Positions 129 through 29,816 of a stretch of DNA of 34,295 nt are shown one piece after another. The notes beneath the pieces were generated by a model. That model was given only the letters and a program-made list of their open reading frames with translations, made no database searches and was not told where the DNA came from. Origin of the DNA: a bacterium (lineage in GTDB: Bacteria; Patescibacteriota; Minisyncoccia; UBA10092); contig JAJYIB010000003.1 in assembly GCA_021790275.1 (NCBI GenBank), forward strand, positions 1 to 34,295, written 5' to 3'. How positions within the stretch are numbered: the stretch's first letter is position 1; each line of letters begins with the position of its first letter. The translations under genes and the position numbers were made by a program.

Positions 129-1250
129 TTATCGAATCGATTCATAGCCGCCGGGCAATCCTTTTTTGGAAAGGACTATTTGCCATAATTGCAAGTCTCT
201 CGCCCTAAAGGCGCCCGCGCAAGACAAAAGATAGTATTTCCACATTCTGAAAAATCTTTCGCCGTATTTGTCTTTTAATTTCCCCCAATTAGAATAAAAA
301 TTTTCAAACCACGCCATAAGCGTTTTGTCGTAGTCCGATCCGAAATTGTGCCAGTCTTCCATTATAAACAATCCTTCGATCGCGCGGCCGATTTGTTTTG
401 CGGAGGGAATCATCCCGTTCGGGAAAATATATTTTCCCATCCACGGATCGACGGAAGCTGTGGAGATATTGCCGCCGATGGTGTGCAAAAGAAGCAAGCC
501 GCCGTCTTCAAGGCATTCGTTCGCGATTTTGAAATAATCTCCGAAATTCTTGCGGCCGACGTGCTCGAACATTCCCAAAGAAACTATGCGGTCGAATTGC
601 CCGTTTAAATCGCGGTAATCCTGCAATCGTATTTCGACCGGAAGCCCGCCGCATAATTTCCGGCCCAGTTCCGCCTGTTCTTTCGACACGGTGATGCCGA
701 CAACGGAAACGCCGTAATTTTCGGCCGCAAATTTCGCGAAACTTCCCCAGCCGCAGCCGATGTCCAGAATTTTCATACCCGGCCGCAACTTTAATTTTTT
801 ACAAACCAGATCCAGTTTCGCATCTTGCGCTTCGTCGAGATTTTTCGCATTTTTCCAATAGCCGCAGGTATATACCAACCGCCTGCCGAGCATATTTTGG
901 TAAATGTCATTGCCCAAATCATAGTGCTCTTTGCCGACCCGAAACGCTCTTTTACGCGACTGCAGATTGAAAATTCCGGCCGCCGCGATACGAAAAACCG
1001 TTTTTAAATTTTTCCCGATTTTATTTTCCAACCCGGCGGAAATAACTTTATAAAAAAATTCATCTAATTTTTCCGCATCCCACCAGCCGTCCATATACGC
1101 TTCGCCCAAACCCAGGGAGCCGCGCGCCAAAACGCGATCGAAAACGTTATCGTTTTTCACCATAAAATCCCAAGGCTTGTTCCCGTTTATTGCGACGCCG
1201 GCTTCCGCCAGCAATTTTGCGGCCAAATGTTTTGCGATGTTTCGCGCCAT
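129..1250 (-). CDS. Cyclopropane-fatty-acyl-phospholipid synthase-like SAM methyltransferase
   Basis: HYDLGNDIYQNMLG, MKILDIGCGWGSFAKFAAENYGVSVVGITVS and SLGMFEHVG motifs are typical of the CFA synthase family. The ORF track starts at 1421, but the internal ATG at 1250 (MARNIAKHL) fits better and leaves room for the divergent promoter. Confidence 0.88.
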   Translation of the reverse strand: MARNIAKHLAAKLLAEAGVAINGNKPWDFMVKNDNVFDRVLARGSLGLGEAYMDGWWDAEKLDEFFYKVISAGLENKIGKNLKTVFRIAAAGIFNLQSRKRAFRVGKEHYDLGNDIYQNMLGRRLVYTCGYWKNAKNLDEAQDAKLDLVCKKLKLRPGMKILDIGCGWGSFAKFAAENYGVSVVGITVSKEQAELGRKLCGGLPVEIRLQDYRDLNGQFDRIVSLGMFEHVGRKNFGDYFKIANECLEDGGLLLLHTIGGNISTASVDPWMGKYIFPNGMIPSAKQIGRAIEGLFIMEDWHNFGSDYDKTLMAWFENFYSNWGKLKDKYGERFFRMWKYYLLSCAGAFRARDLQLWQIVLSKKGLPGGYESIR

Positions 1251-1299
1251 AAAATTATGAAAATCAAGACCGGACGCATTAAACCATAAATTATCCGAT

Positions 1300-1328
1300 T
1301 TGACAAGTTTTTGTTTTCGGAGTAAAAT
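1300..1328 (+). promoter_or_regulatory. Sigma70-type promoter for the response regulator gene
   Basis: TTGACA (1300-1305), 17-nt spacer, TAAAAT (1323-1328); SD GGGAGG just before ATG 1359. Confidence 0.75.
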
Positions 1329-1358
1329 TGGGGAAAATAGTTCTTTTAGAGGGAGGAT

Positions 1359-1724
1359 ATGGTGAGAAAAAAAATTTTGTTGGCGGAGGATTACGAAGCC
1401 CTGCGCCTGTATTTTGAACATTATTTGACAGAGGCAGGGTTCGAGGTGATTGCCGTAAAAAACGGCCGAGACGCATTACCGCATCTCGGTGGAGTCGATC
1501 TAGTTTTGACCGACTTTAGGATGCCGTTTTTAAACGGCATAGAGTTGGCGGCGAAGGCAAAGCGGCAAAAGCCGCACTTACCGGTGATAGTGATCACCTC
1601 GTCACCGTGGGATGTGCCGAGCGATCATCCGGCCGATCAAGTCGTCGAGAAGACAGTCGGAAAAATGGAGAATCTTCTCGAAGAAATAGTTTATGTTCTC
1701 AAAAGAAAGGAGAAAAAAAAGTGA
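1359..1724 (+). CDS. Single-domain response regulator (CheY-like receiver)
   Basis: KILLAEDYEALRLYFEHYL..VDLVLTDFRMPFLNGIELA..LPVIVITS receiver signature; no output domain. Confidence 0.88.
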   Translation: MVRKKILLAEDYEALRLYFEHYLTEAGFEVIAVKNGRDALPHLGGVDLVLTDFRMPFLNGIELAAKAKRQKPHLPVIVITSSPWDVPSDHPADQVVEKTVGKMENLLEEIVYVLKRKEKKK

Positions 1725-2799: not shown

Positions 2800-4080
2800 T
2801 CACCGGACAATTACCACTTTTGAAATGCTGAAAACGCTGTTCAGCGAATAGCGGGAAGAAAAATTTATGTCATTGCCGTTCGCGATATACGGATCGCGCA
2901 TCAGATAGCGGCTGTTCGCGCCGCTTGTCAGAACGACGAAATGCTTGCCGCCGTAAACATTCATTCCGATAACGACCGGATTGCCGGCCGCGAGGTTGGC
3001 GTCGATAACGGACGCTTTGCGGGCGGCGGTTACGCCGCCCGCGCTGATAGTATACAAAAGATAGGCCGGATAATACGCGGCGAAATTGTCGGGATTGGAG
3101 TTGATGGTCGCCGGCGTTATATCGCGATAGCCGTAATGCGTCATCATCATCGCCATCGAGGCCACAAGACAGCCGTCGCTCGCCAGATTGTAGCGGGTGC
3201 CGTTCAAAGCGTCACTCCCCCATTTCGAATCGCGCTGGTTGTAATAACAGCCCCACGAGTCGCAAACCGTCTGGTTGGAAAGCAAATTCGATCCGCCGGC
3301 ATTTTTGGTAAACTCGGAAAAACTTTTAAGCTGTGCTTCGGCTTCGGCAAGTAATTTTTGATAAACCGATTCTCTGGCGCCGGTTTCGGTAAGCAGGCGG
3401 TTTTTCGATTTAATCGCCGCCGCAAGCGATGTTTGCTGTGCGGCAAGCGATGCCCGCTGCTGAGCAAGTGCCGCCTGTTTTTGGCGCGAAGCGTCCCGCG
3501 AATCGGACAGATCGCTTTTTTGTTTTTGAAGCAATTTCACGCCGTCGCCGATCGCCGCTTCCATTTTGACGTTGGCGCGGTAATCGTTCCATATTCCGCC
3601 GAGGCCGCTCGACGAAAGAATCTGCGCCAACAGCGGCGTGTCGTCGGCTTTTTGCAAATCGCGCAGGTAAGCCCCGAGCGTTTTTTGATTTTCGGAAATT
3701 TTTTGCTCTTTGTTTGAAATTTCGCCGCCCAATTCGCGGATTTGCGCTTGAACAATGCCGATCCGGCGATTCGTAACGCCGATTTGCGCCTTAATGGCGT
3801 CGCGGCGGAGATCGAGCGCGACAAGAGCCGTTTTTAGCGTCCGCTTGTCATTGCCGATTTTTTTAAGCTCCGTTTCGTAAACCGCGATTTTTTTGTTCAG
3901 CGCGTCGATTTGCGGATCCGACGCGTCGATTTGATTTTGATTTGAATCCGAAGCCGATGAAAGATCCGGCGCGGCGGCGGCAACCGCCGCCGCGCCGCAT
4001 CGCGAGACCGCCAAAAAACCGGCGGCAAAAACCGCGGCGGCAAAAAAAATAAAAATTTTATTTTTTAGACGATCGGTCAT
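2800..4080 (-). CDS. Secreted coiled-coil protein with C-terminal C39-like cysteine peptidase domain
   Basis: N-terminal signal/TM; PcsB-like coiled coil; YYNQRDSKWGSDAL..DGCLVASMAMMMTHYG..GKHFVVLT..MRDPY matches C39-like Cys/His/Asp motifs. Confidence 0.75.
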   Translation of the reverse strand: MTDRLKNKIFIFFAAAVFAAGFLAVSRCGAAAVAAAAPDLSSASDSNQNQIDASDPQIDALNKKIAVYETELKKIGNDKRTLKTALVALDLRRDAIKAQIGVTNRRIGIVQAQIRELGGEISNKEQKISENQKTLGAYLRDLQKADDTPLLAQILSSSGLGGIWNDYRANVKMEAAIGDGVKLLQKQKSDLSDSRDASRQKQAALAQQRASLAAQQTSLAAAIKSKNRLLTETGARESVYQKLLAEAEAQLKSFSEFTKNAGGSNLLSNQTVCDSWGCYYNQRDSKWGSDALNGTRYNLASDGCLVASMAMMMTHYGYRDITPATINSNPDNFAAYYPAYLLYTISAGGVTAARKASVIDANLAAGNPVVIGMNVYGGKHFVVLTSGANSRYLMRDPYIANGNDINFSSRYSLNSVFSISKVVIVR

Positions 4081-21319: not shown

Positions 21320-21970
21320 TTATATTTTGCCGGCGCTTTCAAGTTTTGCCTGAATCACGGTGCGCATCGAAGACGAACCGACCGGCCAGCAGGTTATCAA
21401 GGCGATATCCGACTCGCCTTGCGGAATCTGCGCCAGCAATTCGTTGGTTTTGGCCGGCGTTAAAACGTCGTCGGCAAAAACTTTGTAAGCCAATTTTTTA
21501 TTTCCGTAAAAAACATAAACTTCGTCGCCTTTTTCGAGCTTATGCAAAAGCGCGAAAATCGAACCGTAGTCGCCGCGATACCAAATCGCTTTCGAGCTGT
21601 GCCCGAGAATAACCGAACGGCCGTTTTCGCCGAACTGCTGGGAGCCGGGATAAAACGCGACGCCGCTTTCCATCGCCGCCAATATCGTTTTATTGTCCCC
21701 GTCTTTCGGAAAAACGATCGGAGACATCGTGGCGGTTTTGGGAATCGCAAGATAATAGTCGTTTTCGCTTCCGGACGGTTTTTCAACCGCGCCGCTTAAA
21801 CCGAGAATCGGCCAATTTTTCAAATCGGACCCGAAAGGGGAATTGACGACCAAATCATAGCGCAAAATCCGAAAATACGCTCCACCGTTCAAAACCAGAT
21901 AAACCGCGAACGCGGCGGCAAAAAATATCGCGGCGAATATCGCCAATTCTTTTTTAGGATTGATTTTCAT
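21320..21970 (-). CDS. Sortase family protein
   Basis: N-terminal TM; SVILGHSSKAIWYRGDYGSIFALLHKLEKGDEVYVFYG; ALITCWPVGSSSMRTVIQA (catalytic H, C, R). Start taken as MKINPKKE at 21970. Confidence 0.85.
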   Translation of the reverse strand: MKINPKKELAIFAAIFFAAAFAVYLVLNGGAYFRILRYDLVVNSPFGSDLKNWPILGLSGAVEKPSGSENDYYLAIPKTATMSPIVFPKDGDNKTILAAMESGVAFYPGSQQFGENGRSVILGHSSKAIWYRGDYGSIFALLHKLEKGDEVYVFYGNKKLAYKVFADDVLTPAKTNELLAQIPQGESDIALITCWPVGSSSMRTVIQAKLESAGKI

Positions 21971-22970
21971 TCGTTTCCGTATCGGCTTTCGCTTCCGATT
22001 TTTTGATCTTTCCGATTTTTCTTTCAAGAATCGCGCCGTTATAAGCGTCGGCCAGAGCAATTCCGTGTCCGAACCGCGCTTTGAATAACAACAAATAAAT
22101 CGCGGCGGCCAGAATCAGCCCGCCCGGAAAAACCCAAAGCCATAGATCTTCCGGCCCCGTCGCGGCGTTGGCCACCGGAGTTGAAATACTTTTTGCCGGC
22201 GCTTCGGTTGCCGCCTGCGCAACGGGCACGGATGCGGTTTCGTAATTCGGCGCGTAGTAGCTTGCGGCATAAGCCGTTTGATAAGGCACTGTGAAATTAG
22301 GATAATTGGCCGGATTGGGCGCGGCGGTGGCGGCATAAGCGACCGGCGTTTGAGGAACCGTGAAATTATATTTTCCGATATCGGGCGCCTGGTATGCGTA
22401 GCCGTAAGAAGCGGGAGTGAAAGAAAAATTATAATGACCGATATCGGTCGAAGCCGCCGGATTTGTCGCCGGAATAACGGGCGACGGGAAATTGTAATGG
22501 GCGGGATTCGCGTCGGAATACGAATCAGACGGCGCGCCGTAATAAGGAACGTATCCATATCCCGAAACATTGTTCGTGATGGGATAGTTGTAAGTTCCTA
22601 TATAGACCGTCGAAGGATAGCTGTAAGTTCCGATGTCCGCCGAAGCCGGATAGTTATAAGTTCCTATATCGGCCGAGGATGGATTATTGTAAGTTCCGAT
22701 ATCGGCCGTCGTAGGATAATCGTAAGTGCCGACATCCGCCGAGGACGGATAGCTGTAAGTTCCGATGTCCGCCGCAGACGGATAGCTATAAGTGCCGATA
22801 TCGGTCGTAGAAGGATAAGTTCCTGTATCGGCCGAGGACGGATTATCATAAGTCCCGATATCCGCGGTATCCGCGCGAACCATCGGAGTCCAAATATTAA
22901 AAGAAAACAAAAATACCGCCGCCAAAAGCGTCAATGATATTTTCTTCGATGCAAATTTTATATTTTTCAT
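21954..22970 (-). CDS. Secreted repeat protein with C-terminal TM; sortase partner candidate
   Basis: Signal peptide; nine [IVT]GTY-containing repeats; C-terminal ATGPEDLWLWVFPGGLILAAAIYLLLFKARF. Overlaps the sortase start by 17 nt. Confidence 0.75.
   Translation of the reverse strand: MKNIKFASKKISLTLLAAVFLFSFNIWTPMVRADTADIGTYDNPSSADTGTYPSTTDIGTYSYPSAADIGTYSYPSSADVGTYDYPTTADIGTYNNPSSADIGTYNYPASADIGTYSYPSTVYIGTYNYPITNNVSGYGYVPYYGAPSDSYSDANPAHYNFPSPVIPATNPAASTDIGHYNFSFTPASYGYAYQAPDIGKYNFTVPQTPVAYAATAAPNPANYPNFTVPYQTAYAASYYAPNYETASVPVAQAATEAPAKSISTPVANAATGPEDLWLWVFPGGLILAAAIYLLLFKARFGHGIALADAYNGAILERKIGKIKKSEAKADTETNENQS
22581..22872. repeat. Coding tandem repeat, about 33-nt unit (SADIGTYSYPS)
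   Basis: Nine recognisable TGTAAGTTCC(G/T)ATATCGGCCG-type copies in phase with the reading frame. Confidence 0.85.
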
Positions 22971-23022
22971 ATTTATTCTCCCCTTCTTTTTTTCCGTTAT
23001 TATAACCGAAAAAAAGAAAGAG

Positions 23023-23063
23023 GCGGAAGATTTCGTCCCGCACTGCGGGACGAAATCTTCCGC
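23023..23063 (-). terminator. Long perfect hairpin / terminator of the 23068-24030 gene
   Basis: GCGGAAGATTTCGTCCCGC-ACT-GCGGGACGAAATCTTCCGC, 19 bp perfect; minus strand continues CTCTTTCTTTTTTT. Confidence 0.85.
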
Positions 23064-23067
23064 TAAT

Positions 23068-24030
23068 CTACGGCGCCGGATGCTGATATGGGATCATATC
23101 AGCATTACCGACGCTATCCTGCTGCTTGGAGTACGCGACGAAATAAATTCGCGCCTCCTGTATTCCGTCGTTGATCTCGGCTTGCAATACGCCGGGATCG
23201 ACGACGAGCGGCAAACCATCGGGAGGTGAAACCATAATCACCTCCCGCGATTTGACGACAAGCGCCGTTGCCGAATCTATAAAATTCGGATCGAACGCTA
23301 TCGTCGCCTCGCCGCCCTTGCTCACAACCTCAAAGTGAGCGTCGGCGGCGAACGCGCCGGACAAAACGATTTTTTTCCCGTTGACATAAATCGTTTTGCC
23401 GGCAAACCTGTCGGCGCCGCGGCTGACTTCGACATCGAAGCGGACAGTGTCCGGCGCCGGCTTGATCGAACCGTCGGTCAGGCCTTTGCGGATCACCGAC
23501 CCGATGTCGCGGGACCGGCCGGTCAACTTATTCGCTCCGACAACAACGTCGAGGCGAATTTTGAACAGTCCGGCCGGCGGCATCGTTGCCGCGATTCTTT
23601 TTTCCGCCGCAATCTTTGCGATTGCGGCCTTTTTCGCATCGCGCGCCGGCCGGTGGTACGGCTTTTTTGCCGCTTTCGCGCGCCGACGCGAAGCTTTGCG
23701 GATCGTCGCCGATTTTGAGACGGCGATTTTCGCCTCACCGACGTAAATCTCCATCGGCGTGCCGGAAGGCGCGCCGATATTCACGCTGATGCCGTTTTGT
23801 GACGGCGCCGGCGTAACTGCCGGCGACACGGCGGCCGCAGGCGGAATCGGCTTGCGCGCCGCCTGTTCCGCCTTATCTTTTTTCACAACAAAAGATAAAG
23901 CGAAAAACAAAGCGACGGCAATCACAACAATCAATAGCGTTACGCCAACACTCACCACAACGCTACCGATCCAATCATCACTCCCGATGTAGCGAACATC
24001 GCCGCGTCTTCTCCAGGGCCTTTTATCCAT
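23068..24030 (-). CDS. Hypothetical membrane-anchored protein
   Basis: Single TM (IGSVVVSVGVTLLIVVIAVALFFALSFVV), Ala/Lys-rich linker, C-terminal soluble domain; promoter and GGAGGTG SD upstream. Confidence 0.6.
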   Translation of the reverse strand: MDKRPWRRRGDVRYIGSDDWIGSVVVSVGVTLLIVVIAVALFFALSFVVKKDKAEQAARKPIPPAAAVSPAVTPAPSQNGISVNIGAPSGTPMEIYVGEAKIAVSKSATIRKASRRRAKAAKKPYHRPARDAKKAAIAKIAAEKRIAATMPPAGLFKIRLDVVVGANKLTGRSRDIGSVIRKGLTDGSIKPAPDTVRFDVEVSRGADRFAGKTIYVNGKKIVLSGAFAADAHFEVVSKGGEATIAFDPNFIDSATALVVKSREVIMVSPPDGLPLVVDPGVLQAEINDGIQEARIYFVAYSKQQDSVGNADMIPYQHPAP

Positions 24031-24149: not shown

Positions 24150-24178
24150 AAGCCCGCCCCGCAATGCGGGGCGGGCTT
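24150..24178. terminator. Intrinsic terminator (bidirectional-looking)
   Basis: AAGCCCGCCCCGC-AAT-GCGGGGCGGGCTT, 13 bp perfect; T-rich on both sides. Confidence 0.85.
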
Positions 24179-24203: not shown

Positions 24204-24545
24204 TTATCTTCCTTGCAGGAAATTTACGATAAACGGCTCGACGGAATACGTCAAAACCGCGACCACAATGCCGATGATGGCATAAATCAAAACGTTTTTG
24301 GCTTTTTCATGCGCCGCCGAACTTGCTCCCGCGAAAAGAAATAAAATGGCGGAGTAAATAAGCATTATAACAGAAACGATGGCCACGGCCGCCGAAAGAA
24401 ATGTCAAAACATTGCCGAGAATGGTGAGAACTCCGGACGGACTGGTTATAATCGGCCCCTGTAAAATATCAGCCGCCGCCAAAAACGGCAGAAGAGCCGC
24501 CAAGCCGAATATCCCCGCCCCTGTTTTTATAAAATTCTTTTTCAT
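24204..24545 (-). CDS. TrbC/VirB2-like pilin-family small membrane protein
   Basis: Signal, then two TMs (NVLTFLSAAVAIVSVIMLIYSAILFLFAGASSAAHEKAKNVLIYAIIGIVVAVL). Confidence 0.72.
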   Translation of the reverse strand: MKKNFIKTGAGIFGLAALLPFLAAADILQGPIITSPSGVLTILGNVLTFLSAAVAIVSVIMLIYSAILFLFAGASSAAHEKAKNVLIYAIIGIVVAVLTYSVEPFIVNFLQGR

Positions 24546-24578
24546 TATAATAATTTTAATTTTAATTATTTACCGATT

Positions 24579-24911
24579 TTAAAAACTGCCGCTTAAAAAT
24601 CCTTTGATAATGCTTGTGATGCCTTTCGCCACCAGTAAAATCACAATTCCGATTATAGCATACCACAAAGTTTTCCGCGCCTGCGTCACTTTATCTTTGT
24701 TGCCGCCGCTTGTCATAAAAATCAGCGCCGACCAGAGAATGATTATCGTCGATATCGTCGCGCCGATTTCCAAAAGCCAGGTGGCTATTTTATCGATCAA
24801 AGTCGGAATATCGCCGGCGCCGATGGGATTAACCAGCTCGACGGCAAGCGCTTTTCCTCCCACCATAAACATTATGGCAAAAACAAGCGAAAAAATCAAG
24901 AATGTTTTCAT
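24579..24911 (-). CDS. TrbC/VirB2-like pilin-family small membrane protein
   Basis: Signal, then IATWLLEIGATISTIIILWSALIFMTSGGNKDKVTQARKTLWYAIIGIVILLVAKGI. Start taken as MKTFLIF. Confidence 0.78.
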   Translation of the reverse strand: MKTFLIFSLVFAIMFMVGGKALAVELVNPIGAGDIPTLIDKIATWLLEIGATISTIIILWSALIFMTSGGNKDKVTQARKTLWYAIIGIVILLVAKGITSIIKGFLSGSF

Positions 24912-24934
24912 AAACAAATTATACCGCAAGCGGT

Positions 24935-25801
24935 TTATTTAGTAAACGTCGTGTCCCAATGATCGCCTTCGCGGGCGAAAATCACGCCGTTCGGCGCTTT
25001 GTATTGAATAGCGCCGTCGCTTCTTACGCCGATATCGGTAAAATTACCGGTAATATAATTATTAAGTGCCGGATTCAGCGCGAAATCCAATTTATAGCCG
25101 CCGGAATGACTGCCGACGCCGCTGCCGGAATGCCCCAATTCCGTACCGCCCGTTATTTCGAGATTGCAATGGCACTGGTTTTTTAATTGAAGCGCTTCCG
25201 CCACCGTTGTTGCCTGAATGCCGCCGACCGACGTGCAACCGCCGGAAACATTTTGAAATCGAGTATCGGCCGGACAAGCGCTTTTATTGACCGAAATGCC
25301 GTTTGTTTGGAAAACGTCTCTCGCGCCTTGTTCCGTCAGCGTTCCTTCCGGACCGGCCGTGCCGCCGGCGCCGCCTCCGCCGAATTGCCCGCCGCCTCCG
25401 CCGGGAAATCGCCCGCCGGCCGCCGGTGCGGCCGGCGGCATCGGAGCCGTGTTGGCCGGAGCGATGCATTCGACTTTATTCCACGGCCATGGAAAAGCGC
25501 TTTTATTCACCGCGAAATTGACAATCGTGTTGAGCACCAGCCAGGAACCGAAAACCCAGAAAACGCCCCAAAGCAGAATTCCCAATCTTTTTTTGGCATC
25601 GGAAATCTTTGTCGGCGACCCGCCGGAAAACATAAACATAAAAGCGATGATTATCGCCATTAAAGTTATCAGAGCGAACGAAGTGTAAATCAGAAAATTC
25701 ACTATATTCTGGATTAAAACGAAAAAATCGCAAACGGTGCAGGGATGAGGCGCATAACTGGTGGCGCAAGGCACAAGGCCTCTCAAAAAATTCAGATTCA
25801 T
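24935..25801 (-). CDS. Pilin-like TM region fused to a C-terminal M15-like peptidase domain
   Basis: NIVNFLIYTSFALITLMAIIIAFMFMFSGGSPTKISDAKKRLG (TrbC-like), Gly-rich linker, then SHSGGYKLDF..EGDHWDTTF resembling M15 SxHxxGxxxD and ExxHW motifs. Confidence 0.65.
   Translation of the reverse strand: MNLNFLRGLVPCATSYAPHPCTVCDFFVLIQNIVNFLIYTSFALITLMAIIIAFMFMFSGGSPTKISDAKKRLGILLWGVFWVFGSWLVLNTIVNFAVNKSAFPWPWNKVECIAPANTAPMPPAAPAAGGRFPGGGGGQFGGGGAGGTAGPEGTLTEQGARDVFQTNGISVNKSACPADTRFQNVSGGCTSVGGIQATTVAEALQLKNQCHCNLEITGGTELGHSGSGVGSHSGGYKLDFALNPALNNYITGNFTDIGVRSDGAIQYKAPNGVIFAREGDHWDTTFTK
25413..25438. repeat. GC-rich inverted repeat in the linker of the pilin/peptidase gene
   Basis: CCGCCGGCCGC-CGGT-GCGGCCGGCGG, 11 bp perfect. 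Confidence 0.6.
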
Positions 25802-27129
25802 TGGTTTTGATTCTGCATCAATGATGAAACTTTCGCCGCGGCATCGCCGAGCGCGTCGGCCGGCTTCGCGCCGTTTAACGTCACCGCATTTATCATATCC
25901 TGAAATATGCGGTTGATGGCGTCGGGGTCGATTTTATACCAATCCGCGGCCGACAAAACCGAATCGGCGAAAACTCCGAGATCCGGCGACGATTGTTCTT
26001 CCCCCAAAACATCGCGGCGCGAAGCCGGCCGCGCAACTTCTTTTGAAAAATAACTATTCACATCCTTGCCGGTAAGAAAAACCAAGAAATTCCAGGCGGC
26101 GGCGGCATTCGGCGAGGCGGCGGGAACGCTGTAAGCCCAGAAATCGGCATAATTCACCGTTTTCGAAGCGCCGGAAAGCTGGGGAACGGGTGCAATGCCG
26201 ATGCGCAAATTCGGCGCTCTTTGCTTTAATTGATTCAAGTCGGCCGCATATCCGAAAATAACAGCCGTTTGTCCCGAAACGAACGCGTCGGCGGAATCGG
26301 GCAGGCTGTTATTCCAAGAATAAGCGTCGGAATTCGGATTTGAAAAATCGGTGTAAAAGCGCAAAGCCGATTCGCCCGGCTTGTAAACCGAACCGCCGGA
26401 AGTTATCGGCTGATCGAAAGCCGCCGATCTGCCGTCGTCGCTTATCATCTTAGCGCCGGCCTGCATCATCAGCAAACTCGCGATATCGGCGGAGTGTTCG
26501 ACATTATCGGCCGTTCCCAAAGCGGCGCCGGATTTAATCAGATTGCCCGCTTTGTCTTTTGTCGTCAGTTTTTTTACGTCTTTGACAAAATCGTCCCAGT
26601 TGGCGGGCGGCACGGCGATGCCGGCCGCATTGAACAAATCTTTGTTGTAAAACATCGCCAGAGCGTCGGTCCAGACGGGCAGAGCGTAAATTTTGTTCTG
26701 CGAAACGAAATCGGAAACGGCGACATCGGGAAATGTGTCCTGAAAAGTTCTCAAACTCATCAGCGATTCGGGAAGCGGCGAAATTTTATTGCCGTGTTTC
26801 GGAAGCCAGGAAGAACGAAACATTATGATATCCGGCGCCTTGCCCGAAGCCAGCGCGTTTATCAAATCCTGTTCGTAAGTCGCCGGATCTTTCTGGACAT
26901 AATCGAAAGAAACGCTACCGTTGGTTTTTTTGTAAGCGTCGAAAACCGGCTGCCACGCCTGCCGATCGTCATAAAGCCCCCAAAATTCGAGGGTTACTCT
27001 TTTCGTGGCGCCCGGCCGCGCGCCGGGGATGATGCCCAAAAAAACCGAAAACAAAAGCAGAATGATTACGACAACGGCGCCGATCATAATCAGCGTGCCG
27101 CGGGTTATTTGATTGCCTCCTATTTGCAT
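25798..27129 (-). CDS. TM-anchored extracellular solute-binding protein (family 1)
   Basis: N-terminal TM, then VTLEFWGLYDDRQAWQPVFDAYKKTNG..LASGKAPDIIMFRSSWLPKHG..YALPVWTDALAMFYNKDLFNAAGI. ATGA overlap with the next gene. Confidence 0.88.
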   Translation of the reverse strand: MQIGGNQITRGTLIMIGAVVVIILLLFSVFLGIIPGARPGATKRVTLEFWGLYDDRQAWQPVFDAYKKTNGSVSFDYVQKDPATYEQDLINALASGKAPDIIMFRSSWLPKHGNKISPLPESLMSLRTFQDTFPDVAVSDFVSQNKIYALPVWTDALAMFYNKDLFNAAGIAVPPANWDDFVKDVKKLTTKDKAGNLIKSGAALGTADNVEHSADIASLLMMQAGAKMISDDGRSAAFDQPITSGGSVYKPGESALRFYTDFSNPNSDAYSWNNSLPDSADAFVSGQTAVIFGYAADLNQLKQRAPNLRIGIAPVPQLSGASKTVNYADFWAYSVPAASPNAAAAWNFLVFLTGKDVNSYFSKEVARPASRRDVLGEEQSSPDLGVFADSVLSAADWYKIDPDAINRIFQDMINAVTLNGAKPADALGDAAAKVSSLMQNQNQ

Positions 27130-27132
27130 ATT

Positions 27133-27669
27133 CTAAATTTTTTTAAAAATATAGCCGAAATGATGACTGCCGGCATCAAGCGTTTTCGATTCGCCAAAAC
27201 CGTTTGCGTCGATAAGCGTTTTTAATTCTTCTTCCGAAAGCCGCAAATTTTTTTGAGGGCCGAGTCCGATATACGGTTTCCATTCGATAACGGCCAATTC
27301 GCCGTTCGGCTTTAAAATTCGCCGCGCTTCATTTATCAAGCCGTTCTTGTCTTTCACTTGAAACAAAACATTGGCGATAAACACCAGGTCGCAAATTCCG
27401 TCATCGAGAGTCGAACCGCGCGGACGTTCCAAATCCGATTCTATCGTTTTGATAATGAAAAGCCCGTCGAGGCGGGCGCGCGAACGGACGGCTTCGAGCG
27501 ACTGCGGCAAAATGTCGATGGCGAAAATTTTTCCCGAGGGTCCGGCGCTTTTGGCGAAAGCGACGGAAAAAAAACCGTGCCCCGCGCCGAAATCGGCAAC
27601 AGTCATCCCCGATTTAACGTCAAGCTGGGAAACAACTTTGTCGATATTTATAAATCCCTTTTCTTCCAT
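27133..27669 (-). CDS. Class I SAM-dependent methyltransferase
   Basis: MTVADFGAGHGFFSVAFAKSAGPSGKIFAIDI; EARRILKPNGELAVIEW. Confidence 0.9.
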   Translation of the reverse strand: MEEKGFINIDKVVSQLDVKSGMTVADFGAGHGFFSVAFAKSAGPSGKIFAIDILPQSLEAVRSRARLDGLFIIKTIESDLERPRGSTLDDGICDLVFIANVLFQVKDKNGLINEARRILKPNGELAVIEWKPYIGLGPQKNLRLSEEELKTLIDANGFGESKTLDAGSHHFGYIFKKI

Positions 27670-27776: not shown

Positions 27777-29816
27777 TTAAATAAACAATGAAGCGAGAGC
27801 GAGCGTCAAAGTCGAAAGTAGTTTTATCAAAACGTGAAGCGAAGGACCGGCTGTGTCTTTGAACGGATCGCCGACGGTATCGCCGGTAACCGCCGCCTGA
27901 TGCGCCGGCGATTTTTTGCCGCCGAGATGCCCCGCTTCGATCCATTTTTTGGCGTTGTCCCAAGCGCCGCCGGCGTTATTCATCAACGTCGCCATCAAAA
28001 TTCCGGCAATGGTGCCGATCATTATCAAGCCGGCTTCCGCTTCCGCCCTCAACAGAATGCCGACGGCAACCGGAACGGCGACGGCCAAAACGCCCGGCAG
28101 AATCATCTGCTTCAAAGCGCCCCGCGTCGTTATATCGACGGCTCTTGAATAATCCGGCTTTTCCGTTCCTTCCATTATTCCCGGATGCTCCTTAAACTGG
28201 CGTCTGACCTCGTTTATAATCGAAAAAGCCGCCTTGCCGACAGCCCGAATCGCCAGAGACGAAAAAACAAAAACCAGCGCCGCGCCGATAAGCGCGCCGA
28301 CAAAAACTTTAATTTTCGCCAAATCGACGATTTGAATATGAACTTCGGTCAGATAAGCCGAAAAAAGCAGAAATGCCGCGAGAGACGCCGAACCGATGGC
28401 ATAGCCCTTCGTCAACGCCTTTGTAGTGTTGCCGGCGGAATCCAATTTATCCATCGTTTCTCTCATCTTGCCGGTTTCGCCCGCCATTTCGGCGATGCCG
28501 GCGCCGTTGTCGACTATCGGACCGAAAGTGTCCATCGCCAGAATATACGCCGCGGTAACAAGCATCCCGATGGTGGCGACCGCCGTGCCGTAAATTCCGC
28601 CGCCCGGAATTCCGGAGAGTAAGCCGATTTTATAAGACCCCAAAAGCGCGGCCGAAATCGCGATAACCGTAAGACCGGTCGATTCCAAACCGACGGAATA
28701 ACCGGTGATAATGTTTGTCGCGTGTCCGGTTTGCGACGCTTCGGCGATTTCTCTCACCGGCCGGAATTTCGCTTCGGTGTAATACTGAGTCAGATAAACA
28801 AAAACGATGCTGGTTAAAATTCCAATGATTCCGTCCCAAAAAAACCACATATTGCCGAGCAGAATTTTGACCGCGAAATAAAACGCGATGGCGGCAATTC
28901 CGGCCGCGACAAAATAACCGCGATTGAGCGCCGTCATCGGATCGGCGTCATTTTTCGCTCTGGCGGAAAAAACGCCGATGATCGAAGCGAGCAGGCCGCA
29001 GGCGCCCAAAACCAAAGGAAAAAGAATGCCGGAAATTCCGAAATAGGGATAAAGAGATGCGCCCAAAATCATCGCGCCGATATTTTCGGCCGCCGTCGAT
29101 TCGAAAATGTCCGCTCCGCGGCCGGCGCAATCGCCGACGTTATCGCCGACCAAGTCGGCGACCACCGCCGGATTTCTCGGATCGTCTTCCGGAATGCCGG
29201 CTTCGATCTTGCCGACCAAATCGGCGCCGACATCGGCCGCTTTGGTATAAATCCCGCCGCCGAGCTGGGAAAAAAGCGCCACCAGCGACGCACCGAAGCC
29301 ATAGCCGACGATAAGCGAAGGAATTTTGGCCGCTTCGTAGCCGAACAATCTGTAAATTTCAAAAAGCCCCGCAATACCCATTAAACTCAATGAAACGATA
29401 ATCAATCCGGAAACCGCTCCGCCCCTTAAAGCGACCGAAAGCGCTTCGCCGAAGCTGTTTTTGGCGGCGGCGGCCGAACGCGAATTGGATCGAACCGCCA
29501 CCGACATCCCGATAATTCCGGAAACCGCCGAAGATGCGGCGCCAAAAACAAACGCCAGCGCCATCTGCCAGCCCAAAACCGGTTTGCCGGAAAAATAATA
29601 AGCCGCCCACAAGCCGGCGGCGGCTATCGCGCCGATAAAGGCGATGGTTTTGTATTGACGGCCGATGAAAGCGGAAGCGCCTTCGCGAATCGCGCCGGAA
29701 ACGCGCTTCATTTCTTCGGTGCCCTGATCTTTTTTAACAAGCCAGAAAATAAAATAAACCGCAACGCCCAGCGCGATCAAAGGAAAAAACAAAGCGATAA
29801 AAATCGGATTTGGCAT
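27777..29816 (-). CDS. hppA: Membrane-bound proton-translocating pyrophosphatase
   Basis: GGGIYTKAADVGADLVGKIEAGIPEDDPRNPAVVADLVGDNVGDCAGRGADIFES; AGNTTKALTKGYAIGSA; GDTVGDPFKDTAGPSLHVLIKL. Confidence 0.96.
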   Translation of the reverse strand: MPNPIFIALFFPLIALGVAVYFIFWLVKKDQGTEEMKRVSGAIREGASAFIGRQYKTIAFIGAIAAAGLWAAYYFSGKPVLGWQMALAFVFGAASSAVSGIIGMSVAVRSNSRSAAAAKNSFGEALSVALRGGAVSGLIIVSLSLMGIAGLFEIYRLFGYEAAKIPSLIVGYGFGASLVALFSQLGGGIYTKAADVGADLVGKIEAGIPEDDPRNPAVVADLVGDNVGDCAGRGADIFESTAAENIGAMILGASLYPYFGISGILFPLVLGACGLLASIIGVFSARAKNDADPMTALNRGYFVAAGIAAIAFYFAVKILLGNMWFFWDGIIGILTSIVFVYLTQYYTEAKFRPVREIAEASQTGHATNIITGYSVGLESTGLTVIAISAALLGSYKIGLLSGIPGGGIYGTAVATIGMLVTAAYILAMDTFGPIVDNGAGIAEMAGETGKMRETMDKLDSAGNTTKALTKGYAIGSASLAAFLLFSAYLTEVHIQIVDLAKIKVFVGALIGAALVFVFSSLAIRAVGKAAFSIINEVRRQFKEHPGIMEGTEKPDYSRAVDITTRGALKQMILPGVLAVAVPVAVGILLRAEAEAGLIMIGTIAGILMATLMNNAGGAWDNAKKWIEAGHLGGKKSPAHQAAVTGDTVGDPFKDTAGPSLHVLIKLLSTLTLALASLFI

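What the first reader, a model, noticed from the sequence alone, without database searches (positions are those of the whole stretch)
24204..27129. Solute-binding protein coupled to three pilin-like proteins, one with an M15-like peptidase tail
The TM-anchored family-1 binding protein overlaps (ATGA) the next gene, which fuses TrbC-like TMs to a Gly-rich linker and an M15-like SHSGGYKLDF..EGDHW domain. Two more VirB2/TrbC-like small proteins follow. No ABC permease or ATPase and no VirB4-like ATPase is in the window. This could be a surface uptake or host-contact device in which pilin-like channels, a wall-cutting peptidase and a substrate receptor act together.
Basis: partly seen in the sequence, partly recalled or inferred. 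Interest (0 to 1): 0.6.

Follow-up and report, generated by a model that had tools for sequence, protein, structure and literature searches.

The report
Sugar-binding receptor with pilin–hydrolase operon
In a tiny, probably host-dependent bacterium (Patescibacteria), a membrane-tethered sugar-binding protein without an importer sits in one conserved operon with secretion-pilus subunits, one of which carries a likely cell-wall-cutting enzyme, which suggests a host-contact device that can be tested.

Summary
The genes are real and at the stated coordinates. A TM-anchored family-1 oligosaccharide-binding protein (SBP), a pilin with a hydrolase-like tail, and two small pilins follow a methyltransferase gene and end at a strong terminator. 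The genome, of the Ca. Azambacteria family, has no PF00528 permease. It does have VirB4, TrsD, PrgI and another pilin on contig C35. The order is deeply conserved. The SBP is in 251/286 genomes of the class and 213/287 of the phylum, nearly always single-copy. A T4SS-type pilin starts within 400 bp downstream in 62/66 class loci and 24/40 loci from other classes. In three genomes (two families) the SBP–pilin genes run straight into prgI–trsD–virB4. The tail of the first pilin switches between an M15-like domain and a bona fide SLT transglycosylase, which supports wall cutting. The M15 label rests on motif, gene context and one weak fold hit; HMM, profile and PDB searches do not confirm it. Several lineages keep gyrA–(methyltransferase)–pilins without the SBP, so the receptor is widespread but not obligatory. 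Best reading: an accessory module of the known Patescibacteria T4SS, a wall-cutting pilin plus a permease-independent glycan receptor for host contact. Membership in the T4SS is likely; how the SBP acts is inferred.

The parts
27133..27669 (-). class I SAM methyltransferase, first gene of the presumed operon (3-bp gap to the SBP gene)
   Evidence: Pfam Methyltransf_31 5e-17; a homologue is on the same strand in 45 of 60 class SBP loci, and it is kept with the pilins in several SBP-less loci
25798..27129 (-). TM-anchored extracellular solute-binding protein, family 1 (oligosaccharide type)
   Evidence: PF01547 108.2 bits; AF2 pLDDT 92.9, pTM 0.86; Foldseek best 5ci5 E 2.5e-27, then many oligosaccharide-binding SBPs; single copy in 251/286 class genomes
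27040..27102 (-). N-terminal transmembrane anchor of the SBP (residues ~10-30)
   Evidence: hydropathy and model helix 10-30; 59 of 66 class SBPs scored TM, 7 scored lipobox
25798..25801 (-). ATGA stop/start overlap of the SBP and fusion genes
   Evidence: sequence
24935..25801 (-). pilin-hydrolase fusion: two-TM VirB2-like pilin part, Gly-rich linker, C-terminal hydrolase-like domain
   Evidence: T4SS_pilin/TrbC sub-threshold in this member, T4SS_pilin at E<=0.01 in 41 of 47 long homologues; AF2 helices 23-57 and 63-98 plus a separate C-terminal domain, much of it pLDDT >90
24938..25336 (-). C-terminal domain (residues 156-288) with candidate zinc/catalytic residues H232, D239, E278, H281
   Evidence: motif GGTExGH...HxxGxKxD...ExxHWD kept in most of 11 homologous domains, two of them degenerate; relatives carry an SLT domain at this place
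24579..24911 (-). small T4SS-type pilin 2 (ATG start at 24911; TTG at 24929 also possible)
   Evidence: PF18895 45.6 bits; orthologues in all six order relatives examined
24204..24545 (-). small T4SS-type pilin 1
   Evidence: PF18895 34.7 bits; orthologues in five of six order relatives, the sixth contig ends before it
24150..24178 (-). intrinsic terminator (13 bp stem, 11 GC), works on both strands, closes the operon

Best explanation
The operon encodes an accessory, surface-facing module of the monoderm-type T4SS that is nearly universal in Patescibacteria. Two small VirB2-like pilins and a third pilin with an outward-facing wall hydrolase (M15-like here, SLT transglycosylase in relatives; a built-in VirB1 equivalent) would join or line the T4SS conduit or pilus, with VirB4 on contig C35 as the motor, and open peptidoglycan locally. 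The tethered oligosaccharide-binding SBP does not feed an ABC transporter. It would sit beside this apparatus as a receptor that captures glycan ligands from the wall or the host surface and signals contact, or presents the ligand to the conduit. Shown: gene content, operon layout, deep conservation, absence of a PF00528 permease, presence of VirB4, and swapping of tail domains. Inferred: physical association, the ligand, catalysis, and the direction of transport or signalling.
For: Pilins match the T4SS_pilin family. VirB4 (377 bits, above the NCBIfam cut-off) and TrsD are on C35, with a further pilin. The SBP-pilin genes run into prgI-trsD-virB4 in L098, L094 and L112. A pilin starts within 400 bp downstream of the SBP in 62/66 class and 24/40 other-class loci, although the upstream genes differ (gyrA-methyltransferase, nusA-methyltransferase, galU). 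The SBP has an intact oligosaccharide-binding fold and near-invariant positions. No PF00528 permease in the own genome and 26/143 in the class, while the SBP is in 251/286; none of 10 permease loci sampled has an SBP of this family within 1.5 kb. The C-terminal enzyme type is swapped on one pilin scaffold: 11 SLT, about 10 M15-like and 3 further motif-type fusions. Saccharibacterial T4SS genes and a pilin array are reported essential for epibiotic growth (PMC12102498).
Against: At least eight SBP-less genomes keep the same locus as gyrA-(methyltransferase)-pilins with no SBP between, and SBP-less genomes hold about as many pilins. So the SBP is not needed for the pilins. In other classes the SBP can lie beside glycosyltransferase/O-antigen-ligase-like or VanW-like genes without pilins. 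Both VirB4 and the SBP are near universal, so co-occurrence has little power, and some SBP genomes lack a detectable VirB4. The M15 assignment is weak. No SBP-pilin fusion was found. Two of seven order members have no hydrolase tail.
Confidence: 0.4

Rival explanations
1. Receptor-fed uptake: the SBP hands oligosaccharides or wall fragments to a channel of pilin-like proteins, which import them in place of an ABC permease.
For: Intact oligosaccharide-SBP fold, no PF00528 permease, adjacency to channel-forming pilins. A review suggests the Saccharibacteria T4SS as a possible nucleotide importer, citing a T4SS linked to DNA uptake in Helicobacter (PMC11665869).
Against: No precedent known to me for SBP-fed import through VirB2-like pilins. 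Pilins persist without the SBP. Pilins are structural subunits and no pore was shown.
Confidence: 0.15
2. Co-transcribed neighbours with separate jobs: the SBP is a surface glycan-binding protein (adhesin, sensor or envelope factor) acting alone, and the pilins serve the T4SS.
For: SBP and pilins can be uncoupled in both directions. In other classes the SBP lies next to galU, glycosyltransferase/O-antigen-ligase-like or VanW-like envelope genes.
Against: SBP-pilin adjacency is kept across dozens of families while upstream neighbours change, more than inert neighbours would be expected to show.
Confidence: 0.3
3. Ordinary ABC sugar uptake: the SBP serves a permease in the missing ~9% of the genome or one outside PF00528.
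For: Genome 91% complete; the fold is that of ABC-transporter SBPs.
Against: No PF00528 match in the own genome while all 14 controls ring; most class genomes that carry the SBP cannot have such a permease; 0 of 10 sampled permease loci has this SBP within 1.5 kb.
Confidence: 0.07
4. The pilins form a T4SS-independent surface filament or pore, with the hydrolase tail opening the cell's own wall.
For: In most genomes the array is far from virB4, on another contig or tens of kb away.
Against: Contiguity with prgI-trsD-virB4 in three genomes; no other assembly ATPase in the operon.
Confidence: 0.1

Closest known systems
Patescibacteria T4SS related to MPF-FATA conjugation systems, with VirB2 arrays (PMC12102498)
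   Same: VirB4, TrsD, PrgI and pilin near dnaA/yidC on contig C35; arrays of divergent VirB2-like pilins
   Different: That paper does not mention solute-binding proteins (word search) and concludes that VirB2 genomes mostly lack VirB1; here an SBP heads the array and a hydrolase is fused to a pilin, usually away from virB4
VirB1 / TraG-type wall hydrolases of T4SS
   Same: A peptidoglycan hydrolase tied to T4SS assembly; in relatives a true SLT domain
   Different: Fused to a VirB2-like two-TM pilin instead of being a separate soluble or bitopic protein; the M15-like version is a different enzyme type
Family-1 oligosaccharide-binding proteins of ABC transporters (MalE, GacH, Lin1841, Tlet_1705)
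   Same: Fold, length and sequence family
   Different: Neither MalFG-type permease genes nor an ATPase gene beside it; anchored mostly by an uncleaved TM; pilin genes in place of transporter genes
PrgZ/TraC pheromone receptors (enterococcal conjugative plasmids) and ChvE-VirA (Agrobacterium); from my own knowledge
   Same: A solute-binding protein acting as ligand sensor for a T4SS
   Different: PrgZ is a peptide-type SBP using the host Opp permease and ChvE is another SBP family; neither lies in a pilin operon; no equivalent of PrgX or VirA was looked for here

Membership tests
T4SS_pilin (PF18895, VirB2-like) | Profile match above the curated cut-off | tested here: met
   45.6 and 34.7 bits for the two small proteins, cut-off 26.6; the fusion itself is below (15.9)
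T4SS_pilin (PF18895, VirB2-like) | Two TM helices joined by a short, basic, presumably cytoplasmic loop | tested here: met
   hydropathy and sequence; AF2 helices 23-57 and 63-98 of the fusion
T4SS_pilin (PF18895, VirB2-like) | Assembly into a pilus or channel by VirB4 | not testable with these tools
   only gene context; VirB4 is present on C35
SBP_bac_1 (PF01547) | Sequence profile and bilobal SBP fold | tested here: met
   108.2 bits; Foldseek 2.5e-27 to 5ci5
ABC transporter receptor | Cognate MalF/MalG-type permease (PF00528) in the genome | tested here: not met
   0 hits in own genome, 14/14 controls positive; 26/143 in class; genome 91% complete
M15 peptidase (VanY / M15_3) | Zinc motif H-x6-D ... 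E-x2-H in order | tested here: met
   H232, D239, E278, H281; kept in most homologous domains, two degenerate
M15 peptidase (VanY / M15_3) | Profile or fold similarity to M15 | tested here: inconclusive
   PF01427 only 0.0047 in one homologue; HHalign to VanY prob 12.6 over the motif region alone; no PDB hit; weak viral M15A hit E 0.039
SLT transglycosylase (relatives' tails) | Pfam SLT match | tested here: met
   two members, best 6.9e-23; 11 SLT-pilin fusions by a profile seeded on L023
Patescibacteria T4SS (module membership) | Encoded with virB4, prgI, trsD | tested here: inconclusive
   contiguous in L094, L098 and L112; separate contigs in the window's genome

The most novel reading that the evidence does not exclude
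A receptor-equipped T4SS: Patescibacteria couple a permease-free oligosaccharide receptor directly to VirB2-like pilins with a built-in wall hydrolase, so that binding of host or wall glycan at the surface gates or feeds the secretion conduit. This would be a solute-binding protein working with a secretion pilus rather than with an ABC transporter.
Probability: 0.3. Interest if true: 0.85.

Novelty: new variant of a known kind. Interest (0 to 1): 0.6.

Why it matters
How Patescibacteria contact and exploit their hosts is largely unknown, and the role of their near-universal T4SS is reported as completely unknown in Saccharibacteria (PMC11665869). A gene set whose receptor is found in about 88% of class genomes sampled and 74% of phylum genomes sampled, tying a defined ligand receptor and a wall hydrolase to T4SS pilins, offers concrete handles: what the receptor binds and what the hydrolase cuts would indicate the host surface and the step involved. 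It also amends the published inference that VirB2-bearing Patescibacteria do without VirB1, since hydrolase domains are fused to pilins at a separate locus in some of them.

Tried and rejected
Cognate ABC transporter: rejected for this genome by PF00528, disfavoured class-wide. Gene-order artefact: rejected by conservation. Strict SBP dependence of the pilins: rejected by SBP-less gyrA-(methyltransferase)-pilin loci and pilin counts. SBP/VirB4 co-occurrence as evidence: no power, both near universal and not nested. M15 identity by PDB sequence search, PDB Foldseek on the whole fusion and HHalign against VanY domains from the phylum: no confirmation; the TM helices may mask the domain in Foldseek. 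PF08291 was too rare in the phylum to build a profile. SBP-pilin gene fusion: none found. The first related-loci query was too divergent. Paper searches found no report of this SBP-pilin operon; the library covers open-licence papers only.

Full report
WHAT IS THERE. On the minus strand of the window: a methyltransferase (27133-27669), a family-1 solute-binding protein (25798-27129), a pilin-hydrolase fusion (24935-25801), a small pilin (24579-24911) and a second small pilin (24204-24545). Gaps are 3 bp, a 4-bp ATGA overlap, 5 or 23 bp (depending on the start codon of the small pilin) and 33 bp, and a 13-bp GC-rich hairpin follows at 24150-24178. This looks like one transcription unit. Pfam gives SBP_bac_1 at 108.2 bits and T4SS_pilin at 45.6 and 34.7 bits (cut-off 26.6). 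The fusion is sub-threshold for both pilin models, but 41 of 47 long homologues hit T4SS_pilin at E<=0.01.

GENOME CONTEXT. G000 is 573 kb in 41 contigs, 91% complete. Its SBP is closest (65-70% identity) to those of genomes named Ca. Azambacteria. No PF00528 permease was found, while all 14 controls were positive. VirB4 is on contig C35: the NCBIfam CD1110-family VirB4-like ATPase scores 377 bits, above cut-off. A TrsD-like and a PrgI-like protein and a further T4SS_pilin lie beside it, downstream of jag and yidC and near dnaA (the PrgI family is assigned from the L098 homologue). This matches the T4SS described for Patescibacteria in PMC12102498.

CONSERVATION. In the order, six of the seven other genomes carry methyltransferase-SBP-pilin-pilin(-pilin) in the same order; the seventh, G001, lacks both fusion and SBP. 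In the class, the SBP is in 251 of 286 genomes, nearly always as one copy; in the phylum, in 213 of 287. I fetched SBP loci mostly one per family. A same-strand pilin ORF starts within 400 bp downstream in 62 of 66 class loci and 24 of 40 loci outside the class. By another count, 55 of 60 class loci with enough sequence have a pilin start within 1.5 kb, and two of the five others have one a little further. The upstream neighbour changes: gyrA-methyltransferase in most of the class, nusA-methyltransferase in the window's family, galU in several other classes. The SBP-pilin pair stays, which argues for selection on it rather than inertia.

LINK TO THE T4SS. In L098, L094 and L112 (three genomes, two families) the SBP and two pilin genes run directly into prgI (PF12666), the trsD-like gene and virB4 (PF19044, 102.9 bits) (the Pfam scan was made on L098, the other two by gene order, length and the VirB4 coordinates). 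Elsewhere the two loci are apart. VirB4 (250/286) and the SBP (251/286) are both near universal and neither is nested in the other, so co-occurrence proves little.

THE SBP. AlphaFold2 gives pLDDT 92.9 and pTM 0.86. The best PDB matches are oligosaccharide-binding proteins: Tlet_1705, GacH, beta-1,2-glucooligosaccharide-binding Lin1841, cyclo/maltodextrin-binding protein, cellodextrin-binding CbpB (sequence search). Positions such as W50, P99, D100, P151, D155, N162, W178, Q223, W272 and Q317 are invariant or nearly so across 33 to 48 diverse members. Fifty-nine of 66 class SBPs scored as TM-anchored and 7 as lipoproteins. Only 26 of 143 class genomes have any PF00528 permease, and none of 10 sampled permease loci has this SBP within 1.5 kb. 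For most members an ABC partner of this type is therefore excluded.

THE FUSION. The pilin part has a VPCG...C..C motif and two TM helices (23-57, 63-98). The C-terminal domain is a separate fold, modelled at pLDDT above 90 over much of its length, with a weak loop at 225-231. Its signature is GGTExGH...HxxGxKxD...ExxHWD. The order H232-x6-D239...E278-x2-H281 is that of M15/LAS zinc peptidases and is kept in most of 11 homologous domains, two of them degenerate. Pfam, PDB sequence, PDB Foldseek and HHalign against VanY domains do not confirm M15 membership. The second-best viral Foldseek hit is a phage 'Peptidase M15A' at only E 0.039. I treat M15 as a motif-level lead. Independent support for wall cutting is the swap: at the same place behind the SBP, eleven distinct relatives carry an SLT transglycosylase tail (profile seeded on L023; Pfam SLT best 6.9e-23 among members scanned), about ten the M15-like tail, and three a second Cys-rich motif-type tail found by a regular expression. 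Two of the seven order members have no tail.

EVIDENCE THAT LIMITS THE CLAIM. In SBP-less genomes I looked at what lies at the pilin arrays. L243, L245, L246, L248 and L249 read gyrA-methyltransferase-pilin-pilin, and L241, L247 and L250 read gyrA-pilins (the ~820-aa gene upstream is gyrA by sequence where printed and by position and length in the rest). The SBP was lost, or never inserted, there, and pilin numbers are similar. In some other classes the SBP lies with glycosyltransferase/O-antigen-ligase-like or VanW-like genes and no pilin. So receptor and pilins are usually linked but separable. Family names for these neighbours are my reading of the sequences, not a database result.

MECHANISM. 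Most likely this is an accessory surface module of the Patescibacteria T4SS. Pilins extend or line the conduit, the fused hydrolase opens the wall locally as VirB1 does elsewhere, and the tethered SBP senses or captures glycan at the contact site. From my own knowledge, SBPs act as sensors for T4SS twice (PrgZ/TraC of enterococcal plasmids, ChvE-VirA of Agrobacterium), so a receptor role has precedent even though those proteins are not homologous systems. Direct uptake through the pilins is possible but has no precedent known to me.

LITERATURE. PMC12102498 reports arrays of 2-11 VirB2-like pilins, essentiality of a pilin array in Ca. S. epibionticum, and that most VirB2 genomes lack VirB1; it does not contain the word 'solute'. 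PMC10936435 names T4SS pilins among proteins it discusses as host-adhesion related, from its expression analysis of cultured Paceibacteria attached to methanogens. PMC11665869 states that the role of the T4SS in Saccharibacteria is completely unknown. I found no report of this operon or of hydrolase-pilin fusions in the open library.

VERDICT. Observation confirmed; interpretation partly supported; a new variant of a known kind, of above-average interest because it is phylum-wide, apparently unreported and testable.

Noticed in passing
window 21320-24030 (-): A separate unit after the terminator: a TM protein (23068-24030), a secreted protein with about ten TADIGTY-type tandem repeats and a C-terminal TM (21954-22970), and an overlapping sortase (21320-22060). 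The order is kept in L018, L020 and L023; it may be a dedicated sortase with its repeat-rich substrate.
   Followed up: partly
window 27777-29816 (-): Membrane pyrophosphatase gene sits between nusA and the methyltransferase here and in L018, but in other relatives with these genes nusA leads to the methyltransferase without it: an apparent insertion in, or loss from, the operon.
   Followed up: partly
L243, L245, L246, L248, L249: A small SAM methyltransferase stays between gyrA and the pilins even where the SBP is missing, so it may act on the pilins or the T4SS.
   Followed up: partly
L148, L156: In other classes the same SBP family sits between a glycosyltransferase-like gene and an O-antigen-ligase-like gene, without pilins, hinting at a glycan ligand.
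   Followed up: no
window 2800-4080 (-): Secreted coiled-coil protein with a C-terminal C39-like peptidase sequence, possibly another wall or peptide hydrolase.
   Followed up: no
window 129-1421 (-): Gene resembling cyclopropane-fatty-acyl-phospholipid synthase, unexpected for a genome this reduced; read from sequence only.
   Followed up: no
G000:C31:4085-4471 (L266): The genome also has a canonical VanY-type M15 carboxypeptidase elsewhere (1.1e-21), distinct from the fused domain.
   Followed up: no
L129:623-2851 (+): In another class a 742-aa protein near an SBP-pilin locus carries an SLT domain without a pilin part.
   Followed up: no
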